Shown here: positions 31,972 through 45,760 of the stretch, piece by piece
How positions within the stretch are numbered: position 1 is the first letter of the stretch
How the letters are laid out: every line of letters starts with the position of its first letter
DNA from: Saccharobesus litoralis
GTDB taxonomy: Bacteria; Pseudomonadota; Gammaproteobacteria; Enterobacterales; Alteromonadaceae
Reading direction: 5' to 3'
Assembly (NCBI RefSeq): GCF_003063625.1
Contig: NZ_CP026604.1
Span: 2,542,001-2,606,000 of the forward strand
DNA: 64,000 nucleotides
Made by a program: the position numbers and the translations under genes
The notes under the pieces: generated by a model
Told to the model about the DNA's origin: nothing
Database searches by the model: none
The model's input: the letters and a program-made list of their open reading frames with translations, nothing else

Positions 31972-33204
31972 CTATGCTGCTGCACTACCTGCTTGTACTT
32001 TTACCGTATCAAGCCATTCAATCGCTTGGTTGTATACACTACCAACAATATCAACGGATAAGCTTAAGTCATCGGCACCGGATTCTACAGCTGACCAATT
32101 AGCGGTTTCATAGTCTTTTGCTAATTGTAGATACATACCTAATTTGCCAACACCTTGCGTTAACGCTTGCTTTATTTCATCTAGCACGGGAAGCTTTTCA
32201 ATTAATGACACCATTTCTTCATCTAGCATGGCGTCGACCAATGAGAACATACCGGTTAAAAAAGCAGTCGGTGGGTTTTCGTTATCCCCTCTTTGCTGAG
32301 CCAGCAAGCCACAGAAGCGTGCACGTACAACTGAAAGATTCAATAATTCATTTGGCTTTTCATCATTTAAGTTGGCAAGCGCAAGTAAGGATATGAATTT
32401 TTTCAGCTCGGCTTCACCCATATAAATTAAAGCGTGCTTGAGCGAGCCGATTTTTTGACTACGACCAAACGCCGAGCTGTTAATGAAGCGTAGTAGTTTG
32501 TATGACAACGCAACATCACGCTCGATAATGTCAGATACTTTTTCAATGTCGATTTTCTCTGAGCATGAAGCACTGATAAGCTCTAGTAAGTTTAATTTAT
32601 TGCTGGTTAATGTTTTACGTTTCATTATTTCCGGTCTAGCAAAAAAGTAACCTTGAAAATAATCAAACCCGAGCATTTTGAGTTGTTCAAATTGCTGAGG
32701 GGTTTCTACCCGCTCTGCTAATAGTTTAACCCCAGAGCCGTCTATGCGTTTAACGTATTTAGCAATTTGTAACAAGGTGAAATCTTGTACATCGATTTTG
32801 ACTATATCGACATAAGGTAAAAAAGCATCCCATTTGGGGTCAAAGTCATGATCATCCAATGCCAATCGATAGCCTTGCTTTTTTATATGGCGACAAGCCT
32901 TGAGTAACTCAGAACTGATGGGAACTGACTCTAATATCTCAACCACGGTATTTTCAGGATCGAGTGATGTCGGGAAGCGATGAAGCAAGGTATCTTCGTA
33001 AAAATTAACAAAAGCGGTTTTGCCTTGGGTAATCGTTTCCAGCCCAGTCATTAAATGATTTTGGGTTAATATTTTTGATGTGGCTTGATCTGGGCACATA
33101 TCTGCCGGAAAGCAGTTTTCTACCCCATCTCGAAATAACAGCTCATAAGCGATTACTTCTGCTTTGTCATTGAGTATTGCCTGACGGGCAACGTATGTTT
33201 CCAT
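31972..33204 (-). CDS. EAL-HDOD signalling protein (YuxH/CdgJ-like)
   Basis: 410 residues: an EAL-like domain (about 1-200) joined to an HDOD domain (about 205-390), the YuxH architecture. Some EAL residues remain (AYELLFRDG, VNFYEDTL, VEILESV, LALDDHDFD, VKIDVQDF, LAERVET), but the DDFG loop is changed to DDHDF. It may therefore bind c-di-GMP or a partner without hydrolysing it, as proposed for CdgJ-type motility regulators. It interrupts the usual ftsX-rpoH adjacency, on the opposite strand. Confidence 0.85.
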   Translation of the reverse strand: METYVARQAILNDKAEVIAYELLFRDGVENCFPADMCPDQATSKILTQNHLMTGLETITQGKTAFVNFYEDTLLHRFPTSLDPENTVVEILESVPISSELLKACRHIKKQGYRLALDDHDFDPKWDAFLPYVDIVKIDVQDFTLLQIAKYVKRIDGSGVKLLAERVETPQQFEQLKMLGFDYFQGYFFARPEIMKRKTLTSNKLNLLELISASCSEKIDIEKVSDIIERDVALSYKLLRFINSSAFGRSQKIGSLKHALIYMGEAELKKFISLLALANLNDEKPNELLNLSVVRARFCGLLAQQRGDNENPPTAFLTGMFSLVDAMLDEEMVSLIEKLPVLDEIKQALTQGVGKLGMYLQLAKDYETANWSAVESGADDLSLSVDIVGSVYNQAIEWLDTVKVQAGSAAA

Positions 33205-33761: not shown

Positions 33762-34616
33762 ATGACTACAACAGCATTAGCTATCGTACCTCAGGTCGGC
33801 AGTTTAGATTCTTACATTCAAGGTGTGAATAGCATCCCTGTTCTAAGTGTTGAAGAAGAACGCGAGCTATCAAAAGATTTATATGATAACCAGAATTTAG
33901 AAGCTGCTCAGCGCTTAATTATGTCGCACTTGCGCTTTGTTGTGCATGTTGCCAAAAGCTATTCTGGTTATGGTTTACCTCAAGCTGACCTTATTCAGGA
34001 AGGTAATGTTGGCTTAATGAAAGCGGTTAAGCGTTTTGACCCTAGTGTAGGTGTGCGCTTAGTGTCTTTCGCTGTTCATTGGATTAAAGCTGAAATTCAC
34101 GAATACGTATTAAAGAACTGGCGTATTGTTAAAGTTGCTACCACTAAGGCGCAACGTAAATTGTTCTTTAACCTACGTAAATCGAAAAAGCGTTTAGGCT
34201 GGTTTAACCAAGACGAAGTCAAAGCCGTAGCGGAAGATTTAGGTGTATCAACATCAGAAGTATTGGAAATGGAATCGCGCATGAGCAGCCAAGACCAAAC
34301 TTTTGATTTACCGGTTGATGACGATGACGGTTCTGCCTCTTTTGCTCCCGCTCAATACTTAGAAGATTCATCTTCTGACGTAGCTGAGAGTGTATCTGGT
34401 CAGCAATGGGAAGATCACGCTAATACACGTTTATTAAGTGCAATACGCACCTTAGATGAGCGTAGCCAAGATATTATTCGTGCTCGTTGGTTAGACGACG
34501 ATAGCAAAATGACATTGCAAGAGTTGGCGGCTAAGTACAGTGTATCGGCTGAGCGTGTTCGTCAGTTAGAAAAGAACGCAATGAAAAAATTGAAGAATGC
34601 CATGGGTGAGTTATAG
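33762..34616 (+). CDS. rpoH: Heat-shock sigma factor RpoH (sigma-32)
   Basis: 284 residues, the usual length. Region 2 shows [21 protein letters not shown] and the -10-recognising [21 protein letters not shown]. The RpoH box [15 protein letters not shown] (about 130-144) distinguishes it from other sigma-70 members, and region 4 has [20 protein letters not shown]. It directs transcription of chaperones and proteases on heat shock. A strong AGGAG site precedes the ATG. An intrinsic terminator follows 24 bp after the stop. The upstream CIRCE element implies a second layer of control. Confidence 0.97.
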
Positions 34617-35027: not shown

Positions 35028-36164
35028 TCATTCAAACATTTTTTGCCGGCCAATCATTTGCTGTACAGTGTAAATTAAGAATGTACACCCTGCCGCGACA
35101 ATAACGTAAGCCATGCCGTCGTTACCTAATAAATCGATAAATAGGCCGATGAGTACCAAGCCTAAAATGCCACCTAATGAATCCATTAAGGTGTAACTCA
35201 TGTTGCTCGACATTTGATCTTGGCTATGAAAGCGTTCGCCTATTACGGTTAACCCCATGGCGTAAATTCCCCCCATACAACCGCCCCAAATAAACAATAA
35301 ACACAGAGCAAATAGATAATGAGCATACACGGCCAGCGATAAAAAGACGGCGCAAACTACCGCGACAAATACACAAAGCAACACCAAACTTTGGCGATTA
35401 ATAAAGCTAGAGCAAGTGCTGATCAACATACCTAAAATGACGCTGCCCATCATAAACGCTGTCATGAGTAATGTGGCTTGCTGGTCATTCAAACCGCTGT
35501 TTATGCCGTATAACGTCAGGAAGTTGGGCAAGCCGTAAAAACTAATACCGCCAACTAGTGCTGAGAATAAAATGATTTTCGCGTGGCGATAAATAAAACG
35601 CACGCGAATTTGACTATCCACACTGAAAATTTGCTTTTGACCACCTAAAAACAGCATTAAACACATCGGCAGTAAAATCAGTACTGAGTTAAAGTAAAAG
35701 CGATTGATCGTTGCTGGTAAAGATTGCAAAACGACCGGACCTAAGGCCACGCCGCTAGATAAGGCCGAGGAGAATAAGCCCATTAACAAACCTTTTGATT
35801 TACCTAACGTAAAACTGGCCAGCCAAGTTTGAATTAATACAATCAGCATGCCTGTGGTGGCGCCGTAAACAAAAATACCAGCAAGCCATAATAAGTAATT
35901 ATCGTTATGCGCCAATAAAGCAATGGCGATAGCGCGTGAGCATGACAGAATAACTAGCGTGCAAAATAACCCTAACTTTTGAATTAAACGCGCGAGCTGC
36001 GAATAAAGCATCAGCATGGCCAGTATTTCAAATGACATGGCAATACCAATTAACATATTGCTGATCCCTTGCAGGCTCAGGATCACGGGAAAGGTGACGT
36101 AGTTGATGCCAGAGGACAGTTGTACCAGTAAGGTCACAATAATCAGTGTAATGGCAGTTTTCAT
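35028..36164 (-). CDS. MFS transporter, last gene of the amine-channel operon
   Basis: 378 residues with about eleven to twelve hydrophobic helices and the general major-facilitator layout. The family resembles small YcaD-like transporters, but the substrate is not readable. It begins 5 bp after the stop of the Cache-sensor gene, so it is the fifth gene of a close-set operon (decarboxylase, porin, ligand-gated channel, sensor, transporter). From that context, import of the amino acid or export of the amine product are the simplest ideas. It ends next to the 68-bp hairpin repeat. Confidence 0.8.
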   Translation of the reverse strand: MKTAITLIIVTLLVQLSSGINYVTFPVILSLQGISNMLIGIAMSFEILAMLMLYSQLARLIQKLGLFCTLVILSCSRAIAIALLAHNDNYLLWLAGIFVYGATTGMLIVLIQTWLASFTLGKSKGLLMGLFSSALSSGVALGPVVLQSLPATINRFYFNSVLILLPMCLMLFLGGQKQIFSVDSQIRVRFIYRHAKIILFSALVGGISFYGLPNFLTLYGINSGLNDQQATLLMTAFMMGSVILGMLISTCSSFINRQSLVLLCVFVAVVCAVFLSLAVYAHYLFALCLLFIWGGCMGGIYAMGLTVIGERFHSQDQMSSNMSYTLMDSLGGILGLVLIGLFIDLLGNDGMAYVIVAAGCTFLIYTVQQMIGRQKMFE

Positions 36165-36169
36165 CTGGC

Positions 36170-37546
36170 TTACACCTTGTCGACTGTAAAGAGCAAACTA
36201 AACTGCCAATTTACGGCGGAAAGAGTTTGACGTTCATAACTTTCTAATTGATAGCTGGTGTCAATATTTGATAAGCCATTGCGCACTTGATGTAGCCACA
36301 ACCAAGCTTGGTTTTGTTCGCTTATTTGCCAAGCTAAAGGTAAGGTAAATGCCTGCGGATCGCCCGTTAACACCTTATGTATTGCATCCGTCAACTCGTT
36401 TGACTGGCAAGTGATCCGTAATTTTAATTGCCATGTCATAACTTGTTCTTCGCTAATCATTAGTTGGCATTGATTAATTGGGTTAAGTCTATCGAGTGCT
36501 TGCAACAATAAGCTTAACTGCTGTTTTATAGGCTCGGCATACCCTTTTACACATTCAGGTAGTTCTTCGCTATATTGCATTGTCGGCTTATGACTTAATT
36601 TTGCAACAATACCTGTTAGCAGATCTTCAGGGTCAAACTCTTGCTTAGCACTTGGCTTTTGTTGCACAAAACTCAAGCCAAACGATTGCAATATAGTTAA
36701 TTGTTTAAGATAAGTCGCCGTGTCGATTTGTTGTTGGTTAAAGCGTTCTGTTAAGTTTTTTTGCATGTCTAAATATAGTTGGGCGCTCAATTTATCGGTT
36801 TTCTGCTGGTGCTTAACTTGCTGTTTTAACGACGTAAAATTTTCCAGCTCGTTAATCGCAGAGCGGCGCATAAACCACACAGCTAAGCCAACCACTAAAC
36901 CTAAAAACACTATGGTGATGGTGGCTTTTTCAAAGACGATATTTATTTTTTCAAGGCGCTGATAAAAACCGCTCAGCTCCAAATCCATCCCTAGGGTGCC
37001 AACTTGCTGACCTTGGCTGTCATAAAAAGGCGCATAGGCACTAATAAAGGTTCCCCAAACATCTGTGTAGGGCAGCTCGTTAACAAAAGCCTTGCCCAAT
37101 GTTAATGCTTGCATTAATTCCTCAGAATAATCAGGGTAGGGATCCATTAATGCAGGCGCTAAGTCTGGCTGGCCATCACCATCCCCATCATTTTGTGGGC
37201 TAGGGTTAACCACAAAATACACTTTGTCGCCTTGTAGAATATTAGTGTAGATATAGCGCACATCTTTAGATGCTTGGCGAACGGCTTCTAATGGTTGCGC
37301 TTGGCTTAGGTATTGCGGATCATCGCGAGGAGTGTCACGAGTAAAGGTTTTATGCAGATCACCATCAATACGGCTTGCCGCAGATTTCACATTCGACAAA
37401 AGACCAATTTTAATTTCTTGGTCTAATGTGCTGAGCGACTTGCTATAAACTAAAAATGTCGAGCTACCTAGCAAGGCGATAAACACCAAGGTAACGCCAA
37501 TCGCTTCTAATAACACTCGGGTTTTTTTATGCTTCAAGGTTTTCAT
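36170..37546 (-). CDS. Cache-type membrane sensor with degenerate kinase-like tail
   Basis: 458 residues from the ATG at 37546, which overlaps the channel gene stop (ATGA); the frame is open to 37615. A first membrane helix (about 11-33), a periplasmic Cache/PDC-like domain (about 35-205; RYIYTNILQGDKVYFVVNP, then SAYAPFYDSQGQQVGTLGMDL), a second helix (about 213-232), a Gln-rich coiled coil (about 240-300) and a C-terminal domain. The tail has the spacing of a GHKL ATPase but lacks recognisable N, G1 and G2 motifs, and no phospho-accepting H-box or GGDEF/methyl-accepting domain is visible. It may sense the same ligand as the channel. Confidence 0.7.
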   Translation of the reverse strand: MKTLKHKKTRVLLEAIGVTLVFIALLGSSTFLVYSKSLSTLDQEIKIGLLSNVKSAASRIDGDLHKTFTRDTPRDDPQYLSQAQPLEAVRQASKDVRYIYTNILQGDKVYFVVNPSPQNDGDGDGQPDLAPALMDPYPDYSEELMQALTLGKAFVNELPYTDVWGTFISAYAPFYDSQGQQVGTLGMDLELSGFYQRLEKINIVFEKATITIVFLGLVVGLAVWFMRRSAINELENFTSLKQQVKHQQKTDKLSAQLYLDMQKNLTERFNQQQIDTATYLKQLTILQSFGLSFVQQKPSAKQEFDPEDLLTGIVAKLSHKPTMQYSEELPECVKGYAEPIKQQLSLLLQALDRLNPINQCQLMISEEQVMTWQLKLRITCQSNELTDAIHKVLTGDPQAFTLPLAWQISEQNQAWLWLHQVRNGLSNIDTSYQLESYERQTLSAVNWQFSLLFTVDKV

Positions 37547-38640
37547 AAATTTTGATTCCACCAAATGAGTAAAGCCATCATCAAGATAAAGCCAATGGGA
37601 AACAGATAGCGGCAAGTTTTAATTAAACGCGTATTGGCACTGTTTTCAGGATGACGAACACGATTGATGACTATGAGTAAAATAGCCGCGAAAATGCTGA
37701 CATAACTAAATATCACCAGCCGTTCGATTAAAGTGGTGTAAGGCAAGTGAGGCAGTAAATTACCTGTATAAAAGTTATAGGCAACAACGGTTAGCATTAG
37801 GGTAAATGAGGTTCCTAGGCGTTCACCAAAACCGGCGATCCAGAACACAGCCCATGAGGCGATAATGATCAGGGTTAGTGGCAAAATAAACTGCCAAATA
37901 TAAAAGTCGGATTTACGCGCTACATCAACCGCAATTGTTAGGCGTGAAAAATTGACATCCGGCTCACCATTATTAGATAAATGCGAATAAGACTGACGAC
38001 TCACGCTGGCCTGCGGAGCGGATAATTGGCTCCATTGACCATCTAAAGCGTTACCTAAAACTTTAGGAAAAACCTGTGCTTTGCTGATCACTAGCTGGCG
38101 TTCGTCGTAGGTAAAGGGCTCCATTAAAACGCTAAATGTTTGTTGATCGAACGGGAATTGCCTAAAGTCCATATCCGTTGTAAACGTGGTAGTAAAACGT
38201 TCGTTATATTCAACCCAGTTGTCTGATGAAATGGTCACTCTTTGGTTGGCGATTTCACGCCGCCCTAAAACATTAATAAACTCAATAACGGGCAACCATA
38301 AGCCAAACTGTCGAGCTTGCTGGACCTGAATGTTCTCAAACACGCCTGGTTCAATCGTATTGTCTGGCTTATGCCAACGCATAACTAAGTAAGCATCTAT
38401 TTTGAAACTCTCGTTTTTGGTTTCGACTTGATATAACTTGTTGATATGCAGTGATATTTCTACATGCGTGGCTTGCTGTTGCGCTGAGCTATCTGTGTTT
38501 GTTACTTGACTTGCCGCAGTCGGCTCAAGCCTTGGACTAACATTGACATTAACGTGGACATTAGCGTGCACGTTAGCCATACAAAGCAGTGAAGTGATAA
38601 ACAGCCAGCTAGCTAAGTTCGAGAGGTGCCGATCCCACAT
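37543..38640 (-). CDS. ELIC-like pentameric ligand-gated ion channel
   Basis: 365 residues: signal peptide (about 1-25), a Cys-less extracellular ligand domain (about 58-243) and four membrane helices (M1 about 246-268, M2 275-297, M3 305-326, M4 340-362). The Cys-loop signature is DFRQFPFD (158-165). M2 reads ERLGTSFTLMLTVVAY and is nearly the same as in Dickeya (Erwinia) ELIC, which primary amines such as GABA and cysteamine open. By alignment from memory, ELIC ligand residues Y38, E77, N103, E131, F133, Y175 and F188 correspond to Y84, E120, N146, E174, F176, Y218 and F231 here; F19 is replaced by H65. The gene is in an amino-acid-decarboxylase operon. Confidence 0.92.
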   Translation of the reverse strand: MWDRHLSNLASWLFITSLLCMANVHANVHVNVNVSPRLEPTAASQVTNTDSSAQQQATHVEISLHINKLYQVETKNESFKIDAYLVMRWHKPDNTIEPGVFENIQVQQARQFGLWLPVIEFINVLGRREIANQRVTISSDNWVEYNERFTTTFTTDMDFRQFPFDQQTFSVLMEPFTYDERQLVISKAQVFPKVLGNALDGQWSQLSAPQASVSRQSYSHLSNNGEPDVNFSRLTIAVDVARKSDFYIWQFILPLTLIIIASWAVFWIAGFGERLGTSFTLMLTVVAYNFYTGNLLPHLPYTTLIERLVIFSYVSIFAAILLIVINRVRHPENSANTRLIKTCRYLFPIGFILMMALLIWWNQNL

Positions 38641-38653
38641 AACGCCTCCTTTA

Positions 38654-39340
38654 TTAAAAGGCGTAAGTCAGGGCCAGATACGGCGTGACTTTTTGCCAAT
38701 CACCATCAAGATGATCGTTATGGCTTTCTAGCGCGACTTGTAACTCAAGCCAATCAAAACTATAGCTAACACCTAAACTGGCGTGGTTATAAAACGCTTT
38801 ATTAGCATTTTGATAGGCATTGGTATCGTGGTTATAGAGCAAATTGGTGGTGGCAATTAATTGGGCTTTTTCATTAATTGCGTGGCTATACGATAAAAGC
38901 AAAATGCTATGCTTTTGACCAACACCGGCGTAGTCGGGCGCAAACCAGTATCCGAATTGCCAATTGTCATTGACTGTGGCTTGTAGGTAAATTTCAGCGT
39001 AATTAAGGCTGTTATTCGGGGTAATATCACCAAAATAGCTATAGCTAACTACCCCAGCGTTAAGCGCTAACTCATCGTTAACTTGCCAGCCATAGCCTGT
39101 ATATAAATCGAGTTCGCTATTGGCGCCAGCAAAGTCGACATTTGACGCCCAAGCGCCCATATACCAACCGGAATCATGAGTAAGATCTATGGCACCACTG
39201 AGCGCCGCTTTTTCATTGGTGAGGCTTTGGCCTTTAAATAAATAGTCATTGCCTAGCGTTATGTAACCTGATGTGGTGGCCTGCACGCTACAACTGGTCA
39301 GGGCTGTCGCCAATAAGATTTTATTGATGTGATTGGTCAT
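38654..39340 (-). CDS. TorF-family putative outer-membrane porin
   Basis: 228 residues with a signal peptide (about 1-21). The mature part is rich in aromatic-ended beta strands and begins with GYITLGNDYLFKGQSLTNEK, which is the TorF-family pattern (xYxFRGxS). Further on are LDLYTGYGWQ and NYAEIYLQA, and it ends in F (TYAF), as expected for an outer-membrane barrel. It probably lets a small solute cross the outer membrane. It is the second gene of the amine operon, 13 bp from the decarboxylase and 13 bp from the channel gene. Confidence 0.82.
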   Translation of the reverse strand: MTNHINKILLATALTSCSVQATTSGYITLGNDYLFKGQSLTNEKAALSGAIDLTHDSGWYMGAWASNVDFAGANSELDLYTGYGWQVNDELALNAGVVSYSYFGDITPNNSLNYAEIYLQATVNDNWQFGYWFAPDYAGVGQKHSILLLSYSHAINEKAQLIATTNLLYNHDTNAYQNANKAFYNHASLGVSYSFDWLELQVALESHNDHLDGDWQKVTPYLALTYAF

Positions 39341-39353
39341 GTTTAGTTCCTTA

Positions 39354-40871
39354 TTAAATTAGCGTAATTGGCTTGGTTTTTTGCGATGTCGTAAGCTTGC
39401 TTGTTGGGCTTTGCTCAAGCTGAGCTTGCAACTCTTGCTTTAATGCCGTGACGAATAAATCAATGGTGCTGTGGCTAACGTGCTCCAATATCACTAGGTG
39501 ACTCATGCGCATCGATTGGCCATTGATTTGTTGCAGATCAGAACACAGCGAAAATCGCTGCATTAGGCCTTGGCTGGGGGCTTTAAAAACAATGATATTG
39601 GCATGTGGAATACGTGGCTGTAGGCATAATACTTGTTTGCAGGTGTCTGATAATTGCTCAAGTGTTTGTAATTGCTGATAGGCATATTGCGTGAGTTGTT
39701 CAATTTGTTGGCTTAAAGCGATTAAGCCAGATGTGCCTAAGCGAGTGACTTTGTCCCACAGTAATAACGCCGAAAAACCATTGCGCGAACCCGATAGGGT
39801 TGTATCGTAACTGCCTATGTAATGTGGCCGGTGCGCACCGGCACTATACAAAGAACGCCGTGTCATAAATAAACCATAAGGCCACGGCGAGCCCAGCCAC
39901 TTATAAGGGCTGACAGAGATAGACATAACTTGTGCATAGCGAAAATCAAAGCCGGGAATAGGTGATTGCGCAACAGTGCTGGCTTGTTTGCGGCTTGAGC
40001 TAAATGTTGAATTTGGGGTTGAGCTGCGCGCCGCATTGAGTTCGATAAAAGGGATGTAGTTAGCCGCGAGTGCGCCATCGACATGCAACCAGTAATTGCG
40101 TTGACCACTGCTGTTTTCTTGCTTAAGCACGTGCTGCAATTGTTGGATCGCCAACGGAATATCATCAAACGCGCCGTTAAACGTAGTGCCAAGATTGAGA
40201 TTCAGAATAATAGGGTGACCCTGTGCCACAAAGAACTCTGCTAATTGGCGTAATGCCGGTATATGTATGCTGCCATCGGCATTGACAGGAACCGCTCGTG
40301 GCCATGACTTGCTACTATCTTTAATGCCTGTAGCATCTTCTACACGAATAGGGCAAGCTCCTAATGCCGAGCCAATATCGGCCATATTGTCTAACTGTAA
40401 TAAGCGACATGCCTTGTTGATGGAGTAGTGGGTTCGCTCAGAAAACAAGACAACAGGTGTTTTAGTGAAAGCTTGACTTAAATATTCACGCGCATTCCAC
40501 AAGGCGCATAAGTTACCTTCCGTCGCGCCCATGTTGGTTAAATAGCCCCAGTATTGCCGCTCGCTGATATGTTCGTTTTTTGTCGTTCCACTCAAGTGCC
40601 AAAGGCGGGCATAAAACTGAATAATGGCTCGCTCAAAAACTTTGGCATTGATGCGGTAATCGCCATCTTCAAAGCCATCGCCAAGGTTGAGCAAGTTCAT
40701 TGTTAAAAAAGGCTTTATTTCATCTGATAACTGACAATGCTGGTTGGTTTGATAGCCTAAAAAATGCTGCTTAGTATTTTGTAGTTGATGTAAGTACTCG
40801 CCAATTAAAGCTTGTTTATCTTCTTTGTTTAGCGGTAGTTCCTTAACCTCTAGTAAGCTTTCGTTCAACAT
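39354..40871 (-). CDS. PLP-dependent histidine/serine-decarboxylase-like enzyme
   Basis: 505 residues of the group II PLP decarboxylase superfamily. The nearest likeness by eye is bacterial PLP-type histidine decarboxylase and plant serine decarboxylase: YWGYLTNMGATEGN (107-120), ERTHYSINKACRLLQL (145-160, His148 stacks on PLP), NLNLGTTFNGAFDDI, LHVDGALAANYIPF (262-275, Asp265) and SVSPYKWLGSPWPYG with Lys324 as the Schiff-base lysine. STLSGSRNG-type binding follows (YDTTLSGSRNGFSALLLW). A Ser/Thr-rich insert (about 281-304) and a longer N-terminus are unusual. It would make a primary amine from an amino acid. It is first in the operon with the ELIC-like channel. The substrate is not determined. 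Confidence 0.85.
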   Translation of the reverse strand: MLNESLLEVKELPLNKEDKQALIGEYLHQLQNTKQHFLGYQTNQHCQLSDEIKPFLTMNLLNLGDGFEDGDYRINAKVFERAIIQFYARLWHLSGTTKNEHISERQYWGYLTNMGATEGNLCALWNAREYLSQAFTKTPVVLFSERTHYSINKACRLLQLDNMADIGSALGACPIRVEDATGIKDSSKSWPRAVPVNADGSIHIPALRQLAEFFVAQGHPIILNLNLGTTFNGAFDDIPLAIQQLQHVLKQENSSGQRNYWLHVDGALAANYIPFIELNAARSSTPNSTFSSSRKQASTVAQSPIPGFDFRYAQVMSISVSPYKWLGSPWPYGLFMTRRSLYSAGAHRPHYIGSYDTTLSGSRNGFSALLLWDKVTRLGTSGLIALSQQIEQLTQYAYQQLQTLEQLSDTCKQVLCLQPRIPHANIIVFKAPSQGLMQRFSLCSDLQQINGQSMRMSHLVILEHVSHSTIDLFVTALKQELQAQLEQSPTSKLTTSQKTKPITLI

Positions 40872-41124: not shown

Positions 41125-41970
41125 ATGGTCGTCAGTGATGAATTAATAATGGAAGATTTGGATATTCCCGCCAAGCCAGATCTACTAATCGAAATCGATA
41201 ATCACCTAAAAGAACAAGAGCCTTGTTTAGCAAGCTTATCCGCTATTATTGCTCGTGATGTGGCGGTGTCGGCGCAAATTCTTAAAATTATCAATTCCTC
41301 TGCCTATGGCTTAAGTAAACCTATGGCTAATATTCGTCAAGCGGTGGCGTACATTGGTATTAGTGGCACAATTAATATTGTTAAAAGCTTTGCACTTAAA
41401 CAGAGTGTGTTACAAGAGCAATGCGCATTAAACCTTGGCCGATTTTGGGATACCGCAGAAGAGCTCGCAAATGCCTGCCTGTATATAGGTAAGCAAGTTA
41501 AATCCGATGTACCGGAAGACTATTTTTATGTGTTTGGTTTGTTTCACAATATTGGCGTGCCAATTATGGCCTGCAATTTTGCCAAATACCCCAAAGTACT
41601 GGCTAAAGCTAATGAGGATAACCGTTTTAGCTTAGTACAACTGGAGCAAAAGGTCTTTCAAACACAGCACACTAAAGTGGGTTACCATTTGGCTTGTTCG
41701 TGGAATTTGCCCAACGAGATCAGTCAAGTGATACGTCATCATCATAATCGTCGCTATTTAGCAAAGGTTGACGATCCTATCTGCGCCCAGTTGTATGCCG
41801 TATTTCAATTAGCCGAGAATCTACTCAGTCAAGATCGGCGTTTTATCGATGCGCCAGATTGGCCTTATGTCGAAAAAGCCTGTTTGGATTTGTTGCATAT
41901 TGATCAAGAAGAGTATGAGCATCTACAGGAAGAGTTATCAGATTTAATGCGCGAAGTCGTTGAGTTTTAG
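41125..41970 (+). CDS. HDOD-domain protein
   Basis: 281 residues forming one HDOD domain (about 20-215), with SAQILKIINSSAYGLSKPMANIRQAVAYIG (in segments, about 50-79) and FGLFHNIGVPIM, plus a helical tail. The catalytic HD is missing in the usual way. HDOD proteins act as adaptors in motility and surface signalling. It is divergent from the amine operon (253 bp between starts), so it could share regulation with it. A GGAAGTTAAGG ribosome-binding stretch precedes the ATG. Confidence 0.85.
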   Translation: MVVSDELIMEDLDIPAKPDLLIEIDNHLKEQEPCLASLSAIIARDVAVSAQILKIINSSAYGLSKPMANIRQAVAYIGISGTINIVKSFALKQSVLQEQCALNLGRFWDTAEELANACLYIGKQVKSDVPEDYFYVFGLFHNIGVPIMACNFAKYPKVLAKANEDNRFSLVQLEQKVFQTQHTKVGYHLACSWNLPNEISQVIRHHHNRRYLAKVDDPICAQLYAVFQLAENLLSQDRRFIDAPDWPYVEKACLDLLHIDQEEYEHLQEELSDLMREVVEF

Positions 41971-42095: not shown

Positions 42096-43523
42096 TTACG
42101 ACTTCTTTACCACTTTGAAAATTTTACCTTTCGGGCTGGAACCATTAATTACCAAATACAGCTCGCCACTCGGTGAAACCGCTACATCGCGTATGCGTTG
42201 CTCTATTTTCATGACAACTTCCTCTGCGACGACCTTATTGTCTTGCAACGTTAAACGATGTAACGAGCGAGTAGCCATTCCGCCAACAAATAAATTATTG
42301 CGCCATTTAGTAAAGTGCTTACCTTGGTAAAACGCCATGCCGCCAGGTGCAATTGACGGCACCCAGTAATGCTTAGGTTGCTCCATTCCGGCTAACGTGG
42401 TTTTGTCTGATATCGGCTTGCCATTGTAATTAATACCATGGGTAATAGTCGGCCAGCCATAATTTAGGCCTTTTTGCACAAGGTTAATTTCATCGCCGCC
42501 TCTAGGGCCATGCTCTCCCGCCCACAGTTGCTGAGTTGTGGGGTGGGCGACTAAGCCCTGCGGGTTGCGGTGGCCATATGACCAAATACTTGGCAGGGCA
42601 TTTTTGTTTTTAACAAAAGGGTTGTCATGAGGAATACTACCATCGTGATGTAAGCGGTGGATTTTACCGTTCGGTTGGCTTAATTCTTGGGCTTGCTGCA
42701 TATTGCCGCGATCACCAATCGAGAAGTAAACATATTTACTATCCAACACAATTCGCGAGCCAAAATGCACGCCTTTGCCAGTATAAAATTGCTCGTTCGC
42801 TTTAAACAAGGTTTGCTGATTAACCCATTGGCCATTGTTGATTTGGCCACGGACTAAGGTGGTCATTGCTTGGCTGTCATCATCTTGGCTAGCTTGTGAA
42901 TAAGTAAAATAGAGCCAGCCATTTTTAGCGTATTGTGGATCCGGTACTATGTCGAGATACCCGCCTTGGCCTTTAACGCGTGCTTTAGGCGTATTGGTGA
43001 TAAGTTGCTTGTCTTTATTGGGTTGTTTTAACCAGATCTTGCCCGCTTTTTCTGTCGCGACCCAGCCGCCATTAGGTAAAAAACTTAACGACCAAACCGT
43101 ACTATCAAATTCGGCGATGCGCTGTAAGCTAAAGTCATGGTGTAAGCTATTAAACACAGTTTCATCAAGCGCGGTCGTTGTGGCTGGCCGTTGTTGTTGC
43201 AAGAATTTTTGTTCACGAATAAACACCACCATGGCGCGAATTTCTTTATCGCTTAATGTGATTTTCCAAGCTGGCATTCCAGCGTCGGTTTTACCTTGCT
43301 TAATGATGTTGATTAAGTCTTGATCGGTACCGCCAAACTTCCAAGTATCGTCGACTAAATTACTGCCTAAGCCACCTTGTAAATTTTTACCATGGCAACT
43401 CGCACAGTGTTTTTCGTAGGTTTTTTGTATTTGACCTTCACCTACGCCAAAACCAACGGCTGAGCAGACTAAAGGCAAGAGTGATAGCAGTAAACAATAG
43501 GCTTTTAAATAGGGCTTTACCAT
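42096..43523 (-). CDS. Periplasmic cytochrome c-PQQ sugar dehydrogenase fusion
   Basis: 475 residues from the ATG at 43523; the frame is open to 43553. A signal peptide (about 1-23) is followed by a class I cytochrome c domain (about 28-110) with CASCH and the distal methionine region DAGMPAWK. Then comes a six-bladed soluble glucose/aldose dehydrogenase domain (about 125-475) with GSRIVLDSKYVYFSIGDRGN, IWSYGHRNPQGL, GEHGPRGGDEIN and WVPSIAPGGMAFY. It oxidises sugars with PQQ, and the built-in heme can carry electrons onward. Many relatives, such as E. coli YliI, lack the cytochrome. It is downstream of the amylase gene but separated from it by a terminator. Confidence 0.9.
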   Translation of the reverse strand: MVKPYLKAYCLLLSLLPLVCSAVGFGVGEGQIQKTYEKHCASCHGKNLQGGLGSNLVDDTWKFGGTDQDLINIIKQGKTDAGMPAWKITLSDKEIRAMVVFIREQKFLQQQRPATTTALDETVFNSLHHDFSLQRIAEFDSTVWSLSFLPNGGWVATEKAGKIWLKQPNKDKQLITNTPKARVKGQGGYLDIVPDPQYAKNGWLYFTYSQASQDDDSQAMTTLVRGQINNGQWVNQQTLFKANEQFYTGKGVHFGSRIVLDSKYVYFSIGDRGNMQQAQELSQPNGKIHRLHHDGSIPHDNPFVKNKNALPSIWSYGHRNPQGLVAHPTTQQLWAGEHGPRGGDEINLVQKGLNYGWPTITHGINYNGKPISDKTTLAGMEQPKHYWVPSIAPGGMAFYQGKHFTKWRNNLFVGGMATRSLHRLTLQDNKVVAEEVVMKIEQRIRDVAVSPSGELYLVINGSSPKGKIFKVVKKS

Positions 43524-43604
43524 CTTTTTATTCTCAAATTGTGTGGCGCACAATGTCCTGTGCAGATAAGGAGATTATTTTAGGTTTAGTGTGGGAAGTA
43601 AATA

Positions 43605-43675: not shown

Positions 43676-45760
43676 TTAATCAAAGCTGAAGCTATGCATA
43701 GCTTCCACTACTTCGCCGTTAAAGTTGGTGGCTGACGTTTTCACCTTAACCACAGAGCCTTTGGCTAAACCTGAAATATCAAATTGCGCGGTTAAAGGCA
43801 GAGTATTGTCGAATGAAACCTTTTTAAAGCCTGAGCCCGTATCAATTAAGGTGGTTAACTCAAATACCGGCACAGGGTTTTGCTCTATATTTGACAACGC
43901 GTACTTTAACTCGACATCAGTACCTTCTTTAACTGGCTCGCCAATTAGGCTGAGTTTGCCTAATTTACTGGGCTTGATCGCCGAGTTAGCTTTTAATATT
44001 TTGTAGGTCAGTGGCGCTACGCTAACATTTACCTTACCGCCAGAGGTGGCTACCGCTTGGCCGGACAGCACGTCGCTGTAGCCATTGGCTGTGGCTTGTA
44101 AGCTTACCGATTTGTCTGCCAATGAGGTATTAAATACCAATAGATACTCGACTGGGTTATCTAACTCAACACGTGAAAATGCATAAATGCCAGGGCCATC
44201 CGTTGTTACGTAGCGCGTGTGATGTTCGCCACGGCGCAAGGCTGAATGAGCTTTGTAAATGCTGCCAAGTTCAGCAAAAGCTTGGTACAAGGGGTGATCT
44301 TTATCAAAGTTATCATCGGCTGGGGTTTTGTCTGTACCGACTAAATCTTCGCTGGCAAACTCAGCTACTTTAGATGGCATCATATCTTGGCGGGCTGCCA
44401 TGTCGTTACCTTTACCAGCAAAGCCTTGCTCGTCACCATAATATATGACCGGAATACCACGCGAGAAATACATTAGCGCATGCGCGACAACGATTTTATC
44501 TATTTTTTGTGCTTCGGTTAGTGGCGTTTTTACTTTATCTAAAAAGTGTGCAAAGCGCCCCATATCATGGTTGCCAATAAAGGTTGGGTTAAGGTGAACG
44601 TTGCTATCTCCGTCGTTATATACGTCGTCTTGGTCAATTAACTCTTTAAGCTTATGAGTACCACTTTCGTTAACGAATAAATCGTAAGCAGCGCCTTGGA
44701 AGCCAAAGTCTAAGATAGCCGGCATATTGCCGTCAGACGTATAGTGACTGAGTATTTTCGGGTTACCGTCATACACTTCACCAAAAATATGGAAGTTAGG
44801 AATACCTGCATCTTGCGCGTGCTTCATAATAGCCGGTGTGAACTCAGCCCAAAATTCCGTGTTGACGTGCTTAACCGTATCCACTCGGAAACCATCTGGT
44901 TTAAAGTCGTCTACAATATCTTTAAAGATCTCTATCATGCCTTTGACAACACGCGGGTCATCTGTATTTACATCATCTAAGCCTGCAAAGTCGCCGTATA
45001 CAGAGCTTTCGCCTTGCCAAAAGCTATCGCCTTGGTTGTGATAATAGATAGGATCATTGAGCCACTCTGGCACTTTGATGTTTTCAGAGCCTTCAGGAAT
45101 GACGATAGTATAAGGATTGGTTTTAATTTCTTCTTTGCTACGGAAAGGACAAGAACCGGAATCAAGCGACCATTTTTCGCCTTTTTCACCATGACATTCA
45201 GTGTATTTGATAACATCAGCAGTGTGATTGGTAATGATGTCGAAGTAGACTTTCATACCACGAGCATGAGCCGCATTGATCAGGTTTTTTAGATCTTGGT
45301 TGCTACCTAGATGCGGGTCGATTTCAGTGAAGTCCAACACCCAATAACCATGATAGCCGGTGATATTGCCTTGCACAGCTTGGTTACGCAAAATGGGGGT
45401 CATCCAAATGGCGGTTACGCCCATGTCTTCTAAATAATCCAGCTTGTCTTGCAAGCCTTTCATATCACCACCGTGAAAGTGGCTCTTTTTACTCGGATCA
45501 AACCCGCCGTATGATTCAGGAATGTCTGGGTTACCCATGTCATTACTGGGATCGCCGTTATGAAAACGGTCTGGCATCACAAAATAAAAAACATCGTCAC
45601 GCACATCTCGATTTAAATAATCAGCATAGATATCTTTTTTTACGGTAGTCGTTTTGGCTTGATCGACTTGGCTGCTACAGCCCGCTATGCCGAGAGCCAT
45701 TGCTAAGCTGGATGCTAAAGCAATTCGGTTCAGATTGAATTTATTGAAGTTTTTTATCAT
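43676..45760 (-). CDS. Lipoprotein alpha-amylase (GH13)
   Basis: 694 residues. The signal ends in a lipobox (LGIAGC, Cys28). The GH13 barrel spans about 45-560 and the remainder forms beta domains. Catalytic motifs are GFRVDTVKHVN (nucleophile Asp), FGEVYDG (acid Glu), and FIGNHDMGRF (stabilising Asp). DVFYFVMPDRFHNGDPSND and VTAIWMTPIL are the early strand motifs of secreted alpha-amylases. It hydrolyses alpha-1,4-glucans at the cell surface. A candidate LacI-type operator is 83 bp upstream, and a hairpin terminator follows. Confidence 0.92.
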   Translation of the reverse strand: MIKNFNKFNLNRIALASSLAMALGIAGCSSQVDQAKTTTVKKDIYADYLNRDVRDDVFYFVMPDRFHNGDPSNDMGNPDIPESYGGFDPSKKSHFHGGDMKGLQDKLDYLEDMGVTAIWMTPILRNQAVQGNITGYHGYWVLDFTEIDPHLGSNQDLKNLINAAHARGMKVYFDIITNHTADVIKYTECHGEKGEKWSLDSGSCPFRSKEEIKTNPYTIVIPEGSENIKVPEWLNDPIYYHNQGDSFWQGESSVYGDFAGLDDVNTDDPRVVKGMIEIFKDIVDDFKPDGFRVDTVKHVNTEFWAEFTPAIMKHAQDAGIPNFHIFGEVYDGNPKILSHYTSDGNMPAILDFGFQGAAYDLFVNESGTHKLKELIDQDDVYNDGDSNVHLNPTFIGNHDMGRFAHFLDKVKTPLTEAQKIDKIVVAHALMYFSRGIPVIYYGDEQGFAGKGNDMAARQDMMPSKVAEFASEDLVGTDKTPADDNFDKDHPLYQAFAELGSIYKAHSALRRGEHHTRYVTTDGPGIYAFSRVELDNPVEYLLVFNTSLADKSVSLQATANGYSDVLSGQAVATSGGKVNVSVAPLTYKILKANSAIKPSKLGKLSLIGEPVKEGTDVELKYALSNIEQNPVPVFELTTLIDTGSGFKKVSFDNTLPLTAQFDISGLAKGSVVKVKTSATNFNGEVVEAMHSFSFD

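What the first reader, a model, noticed from the sequence alone, without database searches (positions are those of the whole stretch)
35028..40871. Amino-acid decarboxylase, ELIC-like ligand-gated channel, porin, Cache sensor and MFS transporter in one operon
Five minus-strand genes with gaps of 13, 13, -4 and 5 bp encode a PLP histidine/serine-decarboxylase-like enzyme, a TorF-type porin, a close ELIC relative, a Cache-type sensor and a transporter. ELIC is opened by primary amines, which is what the enzyme should produce. The set reads as a bacterial make-release-sense loop for a small amine, with features reminiscent of neurotransmission. The gene set and spacing are seen directly, and ELIC pharmacology is established. 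The loop itself is inference, and I do not know whether this operon has been described.
Basis: partly seen in the sequence, partly recalled or inferred. Interest (0 to 1): 0.88.

Follow-up and report, generated by a model that had tools for sequence, protein, structure and literature searches.

The report
Conserved amine-making, amine-gated ion-channel operon
A marine bacterium carries a compact operon that pairs an enzyme predicted to make a small amine with a nerve-receptor-like channel of the amine-opened ELIC type; the same four-gene set recurs in two unrelated bacteria, which makes the unknown natural job of these bacterial channels testable.

Summary
The five genes are real, intact and spaced as described. 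Four of them (decarboxylase, ELIC-type channel, Cache protein, MFS transporter) form a cassette with the same order, strand and near-identical junctions in Dickeya undicola and in a marine Pseudomonadales MAG, whose flanking genes are otherwise unrelated. Fifteen other pLGIC loci from the same class carry none of it. The porin is extra in the window; a Gcw_chp porin also neighbours a related Cache protein in one channel-less locus. The core idea is not new: Zimmermann & Dutzler (2011) reported a decarboxylase gene in the ELIC operon and proposed its product as ligand. What appears new, in the papers I could search, is the conserved four-gene unit and the enzyme's placement: next to methionine/valine (VlmD-type) decarboxylases, not glutamate, histidine or serine decarboxylases. 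VlmD makes ethylamine and n-propylamine in vitro; n-propylamine is a strong ELIC agonist. The residues that bind the amine in ELIC are conserved, except F19 (His here). The Cache protein has a conserved ectodomain and second TM helix but no conserved output domain, so it may act on the channel or transporter. Make-release-sense is my best reading (about 50%); substrate, transport direction and gating are untested.

The parts
39354..40871 (-). PLP group II amino-acid decarboxylase, first gene of the operon; sister clade to L-methionine / valine (VlmD-type) decarboxylases
   Evidence: PLP Lys324, Asp265, His148 and catalytic-loop Tyr351 conserved; GYQ loop (Gln41) as in MetDC; cassette-specific SPYKW at the PLP lysine; clade apart from HDC/SerDC with 100/99 support
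38654..39340 (-). TorF/Gcw_chp outer-membrane porin; extra gene in the window, absent from the Dickeya and MAG cassettes
   Evidence: TIGR02001 121.9 bits against cutoff 47.15; no porin in L003/L004; a Gcw_chp porin sits near a related Cache gene in channel-less locus L073
37543..38640 (-). ELIC-type pentameric ligand-gated ion channel subunit
   Evidence: 45% identical to ELIC; E77, I79, E131, F133, Y174, F187, Y38, V40, R91, N103 equivalents kept; F19 is His65; pore E229, L239, F246 kept
36170..37546 (-). Membrane-anchored single-Cache protein (TM, periplasmic Cache domain, TM, unconserved cytoplasmic tail); start codon overlaps the channel stop by 4 bp
   Evidence: ectodomain 63% and TM2 78% identical to the Dickeya protein, tail 19%; predicted Cache/PAS-like fold
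35028..36164 (-). MFS transporter of a cassette-specific subfamily
   Evidence: MFS_1; 51% identical to Dickeya cassette MFS; no paralog at E<0.001 elsewhere in the genome

Best explanation
The operon encodes a self-contained small-amine signalling or homeostasis unit. A cytoplasmic decarboxylase converts a small neutral amino acid into a short primary amine. The MFS protein most likely moves that amine (or its precursor) across the inner membrane. In the periplasm the amine binds the ELIC-type channel at the conserved amine site and opens a cation pore, changing membrane potential or cation content. The Cache protein senses the same amine or its precursor amino acid in the periplasm; because its tail carries no conserved output domain, it probably acts through its ectodomain and second TM helix on the channel or the transporter. 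In this strain a small outer-membrane porin is added to pass the solute. Shown here: gene set, conserved four-gene linkage, conserved active-site and amine-site residues. Inferred: substrate, transport direction, Cache partner, physiological effect.
For: Same four genes, order and strand in three lineages with unrelated flanks and channels 44-62% identical; 4-bp channel/Cache overlap in all three. Linkage is specific to the ELIC subfamily: 15 other pLGIC loci in the class sample have no decarboxylase or Cache homolog nearby and at most one background-level MFS hit. Amine-binding residues and cation-pore residues conserved, including the two glutamates to which the amine is tied in ELIC simulations. 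Enzyme in the MetDC/VlmD neighbourhood; VlmD makes ethylamine and n-propylamine from alanine and 2-aminobutyrate, and these activate ELIC, n-propylamine with EC50 0.45 mM. Decarboxylase retains PLP lysine and catalytic tyrosine. Cache and the same MFS subfamily are linked again in a channel-less locus, where that MFS is the only one of its subfamily in the genome.
Against: No substrate or current has been measured. Products of the best-known relatives (3-methylthiopropylamine, isobutylamine) are longer or branched, and ELIC responds weakly to butylamine, isopropylamine and homocysteamine. Published ELIC EC50 values lie between about 0.4 and 16 mM, so a free periplasmic amine would have to accumulate strongly. 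MFS direction is unknown; no solved relative was found and its model is unreliable. The window channel has His instead of Phe at the F19 position, where F19A raises the cysteamine EC50 above 10 mM in ELIC.
Confidence: 0.5

Rival explanations
1. Uptake-and-sensing unit rather than self-stimulation: the Cache domain detects an external amino acid or amine, the MFS imports it, the decarboxylase processes it, and the channel reports external amine (chemoreception as proposed by Tasneem et al.).
For: Tasneem et al. proposed chemoreceptor roles and noted pLGIC-Cache operons. Cache homologs elsewhere are sensor domains of histidine kinases, GGDEF-EAL proteins and cyclases. Cache ectodomain folds like amino-acid and formate sensor domains.
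Against: A dedicated decarboxylase is in every ELIC-type cassette found; no ABC or APC amino-acid importer is in the operon.
Confidence: 0.25
2. Decarboxylation-driven acid or energy homeostasis: the decarboxylase consumes protons, the MFS exchanges amine for amino acid, and the channel is a product-gated cation leak that balances charge.
For: Decarboxylase plus transporter pairs are a known acid-resistance layout (general knowledge: GadB/GadC, CadA/CadB); the channel is cation-selective by its pore residues.
Against: Known exchangers are APC-type, not MFS; the Cache sensor is unexplained; the cassette is very rare, unlike general pH systems.
Confidence: 0.12
3. GABA loop as suggested in 2011: the decarboxylase is a glutamate decarboxylase and GABA is the ligand.
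For: Published annotation for Dickeya, and GABA opens ELIC with EC50 2.4 mM.
Against: Glutamate decarboxylase model scores 38.1 bits against a cutoff of 380.4 (27.2 for the Dickeya enzyme); the clade is next to enzymes for neutral aliphatic amino acids.
Confidence: 0.06
4. Chance neighbourhood without functional connection.
For: Only three ELIC-subfamily loci could be examined; the porin gene is not conserved in the other two.
Against: Identical order and junctions in three lineages with otherwise unrelated flanks.
Confidence: 0.02

Closest known systems
ELIC operon of Erwinia chrysanthemi / Dickeya (Zimmermann & Dutzler 2011, PMC3119659); D. undicola copy is L004
   Same: Decarboxylase followed by ELIC, and (seen here in L004) the same Cache and MFS genes downstream; the idea that the decarboxylase makes the channel's ligand is published
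   Different: Window adds a porin between enzyme and channel; channel 45% identical, His at the F19 position; published annotation of the enzyme as glutamate decarboxylase is not supported here
pLGIC plus stand-alone Cache operon of Rhodopseudomonas and Cache-fused pLGICs (Tasneem et al., PMC549065)
   Same: Channel and Cache domain encoded together
   Different: No decarboxylase or MFS reported there; the Cache protein here is two-TM anchored with an unconserved tail
L-methionine decarboxylase of Streptomyces sp. 590 (PDB 7CIF) and valine decarboxylase VlmD (PMC7794544)
   Same: Group II PLP decarboxylase, GYQ loop, catalytic Tyr, PLP Lys (MetDC and a VlmD-like enzyme aligned here); nearest clade in the tree
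   Different: Cassette enzymes form their own clade, with Tyr instead of His before the PLP lysine; substrate unknown
DeCLIC (pLGIC with its own N-terminal sensory domain)
   Same: A periplasmic accessory domain accompanies a prokaryotic pLGIC
   Different: Fused in DeCLIC, separate protein here

Membership tests
ELIC-subfamily pLGIC | Full-length similarity to ELIC well above GLIC/DeCLIC | tested here: met
   ELIC E 6e-86, next solved families (DeCLIC, GLIC) about 1e-29 to 1e-28
ELIC-subfamily pLGIC | Amine-site residues of ELIC (E77, E131, F133, Y174, F187, Y38, V40, N103, R91) | tested here: met
   all kept in the window; MAG has H for R91 and Y for F187
ELIC-subfamily pLGIC | Phe19 on the complementary face | tested here: not met
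   His in window and MAG, Phe in Dickeya; a subsite difference, not a defining feature of the subfamily as a whole
ELIC-subfamily pLGIC | Cation-selective pore signature (E229, L239, F246) | tested here: met
ELIC-subfamily pLGIC | Opening by primary amines | not testable with these tools
   Needs electrophysiology
ELIC decarboxylase operon | Decarboxylase, channel, Cache, MFS in this order | tested here: met
MetDC/VlmD-type decarboxylases | Grouping apart from HDC/SerDC | tested here: met
   100/99 split from HDC/SerDC; MetDC and SerDC rows are partial, and VlmD itself is represented by a Streptomyces enzyme near a VlmB-like gene
MetDC/VlmD-type decarboxylases | Position inside the MetDC/VlmD clade | tested here: not met
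   cassette enzymes are a separate sister clade (86/88)
MetDC/VlmD-type decarboxylases | His before the PLP lysine (SGHK or STHK) | tested here: not met
   SPYKW in all three cassette enzymes
Histidine decarboxylase (NF002748) | Score above curated cutoff 305 bits | tested here: not met
   229.5, 245.4 and 202.9 bits
Glutamate decarboxylase (TIGR01788) | Score above curated cutoff 380.4 bits | tested here: not met
   38.1, 36.5 and 27.2 bits
Cache sensor proteins | Cache/PAS-like periplasmic fold between two TM helices | tested here: met
Cache sensor proteins | Recognised by a Pfam Cache model at its cutoff | tested here: inconclusive
   no hit in the window protein; one cassette member matches MCP-like_PDC_1 at E 0.00036
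Cache sensor proteins | Conserved cytoplasmic output domain | tested here: not met
   tail 18-31% identity; tail pLDDT mostly below 50
TorF / Gcw_chp porins | Score above TIGR02001 cutoff | tested here: met
   121.9 against 47.15 bits

The most novel reading that the evidence does not exclude
The Cache protein is an auxiliary, alpha2delta-like sensory subunit that physically gates or tunes the amine-opened channel, so that the cassette is a complete bacterial transmitter unit (enzyme, transporter, receptor channel, accessory sensor subunit) shared by unrelated bacteria.
Probability: 0.15. Interest if true: 0.9.

Novelty: new member of a known kind. Interest (0 to 1): 0.6.

Why it matters
The in vivo role of prokaryotic pLGICs, relatives of the human acetylcholine and GABA receptors, was unknown for every one of them as of a 2016 paper (PMC4795631). 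A conserved four-gene cassette gives a concrete, testable pathway and a short list of candidate natural ligands for ELIC, one of the best-studied model channels. It also redirects the search away from glutamate/GABA towards short alkyl or thiol amines, and adds a Cache protein and a transporter to test together with the channel.

Tried and rejected
First genome-contig scan with the single window channel found nothing; an alignment with ELIC found L003 and L004. Viral-contig scan found no relative. The plasmid search found only a distant Legionella pLGIC without the cassette. Phylum sample: no further ELIC-type channel. An insertion-site test with the flanking HDOD gene was uninformative because only paralogs of 32-40% identity were found. 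No PDB relative for the Cache or MFS alignments. The MFS structure model was too poor to use (mean pLDDT 49), so it was not searched. Glutamate, histidine and serine decarboxylase assignments were rejected on cutoffs and tree. The cytoplasmic Cache tail aligned loosely with histidine-kinase structures, but at pLDDT mostly below 50 and rmsd of 25-31 A, so I do not call it a kinase. The MetDC structure paper was not held; that its Gln64 and Tyr421 matter for substrate binding and catalysis is from my own memory, and the sequences printed show only that 7CIG differs from 7CIF at that Gln (Ala instead).
Full report
OBSERVATION. Five intact minus-strand ORFs lie at 35028-40871: decarboxylase, porin, pLGIC, Cache protein, MFS transporter, with gaps of 13, 13, -4 and 5 bp. 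Pfam/NCBIfam give Pyridoxal_deC, Gcw_chp/TorF porin, Neur_chan_LBD and MFS_1; the Cache protein has no Pfam hit. The channel matches solved ELIC at E 6e-86, far better than GLIC or DeCLIC.

PRIOR KNOWLEDGE. Zimmermann & Dutzler (PMC3119659) state that a putative amino-acid decarboxylase gene lies next to ELIC on the same operon, annotated as glutamate decarboxylase, and that it might process the ligand. Tasneem et al. (PMC549065) noted pLGIC genes in predicted operons with stand-alone Cache or PBP-II genes and proposed chemoreception. So the make-and-sense idea is not new. I found no paper in the held library that describes the four-gene unit or its recurrence; that library lacks most subscription journals, and I could not see the published operon figure itself.

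CONSERVED CASSETTE. A scan with an ELIC/window alignment returned two loci: a marine Pseudomonadales MAG (L003) and Dickeya undicola (L004). Both carry decarboxylase, channel, Cache and MFS in the same order and strand; the MAG's MFS gene is cut short near the contig end. Identities to the window for MAG and Dickeya respectively are 57 and 41-44% (decarboxylase), 62 and 44% (channel), 40 and 63% (Cache; the latter over the N-terminal 220 residues) and 66 (partial) and 51% (MFS). Channel and Cache genes overlap by 4 bp in all three; Cache-MFS spacing is 5 bp in window and MAG and -4 in Dickeya. No other gene of these loci matches across them, apart from one 71-codon reverse-strand match that lies inside the MFS gene. 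GC content differs widely (MAG locus 0.32, window 0.42, Dickeya locus 0.53), so the genes fit their hosts and do not look freshly exchanged.

SPECIFICITY AND RARITY. In a sample of 369 genomes of the class, 15 other pLGIC loci in 14 genomes were found. None has the decarboxylase or Cache family nearby, and only one background-level MFS hit appears; some of these loci are cut by contig ends, so a distant gene could be missed. The channel was found in no other genome of 395 from the order, the decarboxylase in no other of 199 from the family, and the phylum sample of 399 gave no further ELIC-type channel. The window's genus holds one genome.

ENZYME. The best solved match is L-methionine decarboxylase. 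In a tree the three cassette enzymes form one clade (100/99), sister to MetDC, a Streptomyces enzyme near a VlmB-like gene, a Xenorhabdus enzyme beside brnQ, and others, and separated from HDC/SerDC (100/99). The PLP lysine, aspartate, histidine and catalytic-loop tyrosine are kept, so decarboxylation is expected. All three have SPYKW where most relatives have SGHKW, a cassette-specific change. VlmD decarboxylates alanine, 2-aminobutyrate, norvaline, valine and others. ELIC is opened by ethylamine, n-propylamine, cysteamine, aminopropanol and diamines, but only weakly by butylamine, isopropylamine and homocysteamine. My shortlist of products fitting both sides is therefore cysteamine, n-propylamine, ethylamine and 3-aminopropanol (inference).

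CHANNEL. All principal-face residues of the ELIC amine site and the pore glutamate and gate residues are conserved; F19 is His in window and MAG. E77 and E131, the residues to which propylamine's ammonium is tied in a recent ELIC simulation, are present as E120 and E174.

CACHE PROTEIN. Ectodomain and second TM helix are 63% and 78% identical between window and Dickeya, higher than the channel's own ectodomain (38%), while the cytoplasmic tail is 19%. AlphaFold gives a confident Cache-like ectodomain and an unreliable tail; Foldseek finds sCache/dCache sensors of formate, amino acids and GABA. Homologous Cache domains elsewhere head histidine kinases, GGDEF-EAL proteins and cyclases (domain calls there are my reading of the sequences). 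The cassette form looks like a sensor detached from its usual output, which suggests action in the membrane or periplasm, perhaps on the channel (inference).

CHANNEL-LESS RELATIVE. One genome (L073) has a short Cache protein (37% to the window's) and an MFS of the same subfamily, the only one of that subfamily in its genome, 4-5 kb apart, with a Gcw_chp porin, two HAMP-SpoIIE phosphatases, a STAS-like protein and an arginine decarboxylase between and around them. This suggests that Cache plus MFS is a pairing of its own and that the output varies (inference from one locus).

VERDICT. The operon is real and non-random, and belongs to the known ELIC operon type. Its conservation and the enzyme's placement are the added value. 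The make-release-sense loop is the best single explanation (about 0.5), with uptake-and-sensing the main rival (about 0.25). Decisive tests are enzyme assays and electrophysiology.

Noticed in passing
L073 4808-16068 (G675:C15:214000-233000): Channel-less relative of the cassette: Gcw_chp porin, HAMP-SpoIIE phosphatases, short Cache protein, arginine decarboxylase, cassette-type MFS and STAS-like protein in one neighbourhood; the other 64 genomes of a 65-genome sample around it lack this Cache protein.
   Followed up: partly
window 36170-37546 (residues 114-135 of the Cache protein): Loop NPSPQNDGDGDGQPDLAPAL looks like a calcium-binding DxDxDG loop; kept in Dickeya and partly in L073, lost in the MAG. 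ELIC itself is known to be inhibited by divalent cations (PMC3502511).
   Followed up: partly
window 39354-40871: All three cassette decarboxylases have Tyr (SPYKW) in place of the His that precedes the PLP lysine in relatives (SGHKW).
   Followed up: partly
L004 1281-5547: In Dickeya undicola the cassette sits directly beside two pectate-lyase-like genes and another secreted protein that resembles a polysaccharide lyase (my reading of the ORFs, no family search).
   Followed up: no
L003 4372-7218: Upstream of the MAG cassette lie several related genes, at least two of them DUF2589, behind an FHA-domain gene.
   Followed up: no
window 31972-33204 and 41125-41970: Two HDOD-domain genes (one EAL-HDOD) lie on either side of the operon, with a sigma-70-family factor at 33762-34616 on the plus strand.
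   Followed up: partly
window 42096-43553: Cytochrome c domain fused to a glucose/sorbosone dehydrogenase-like domain, next to an alpha-amylase-family gene at 43676-45760.
   Followed up: no
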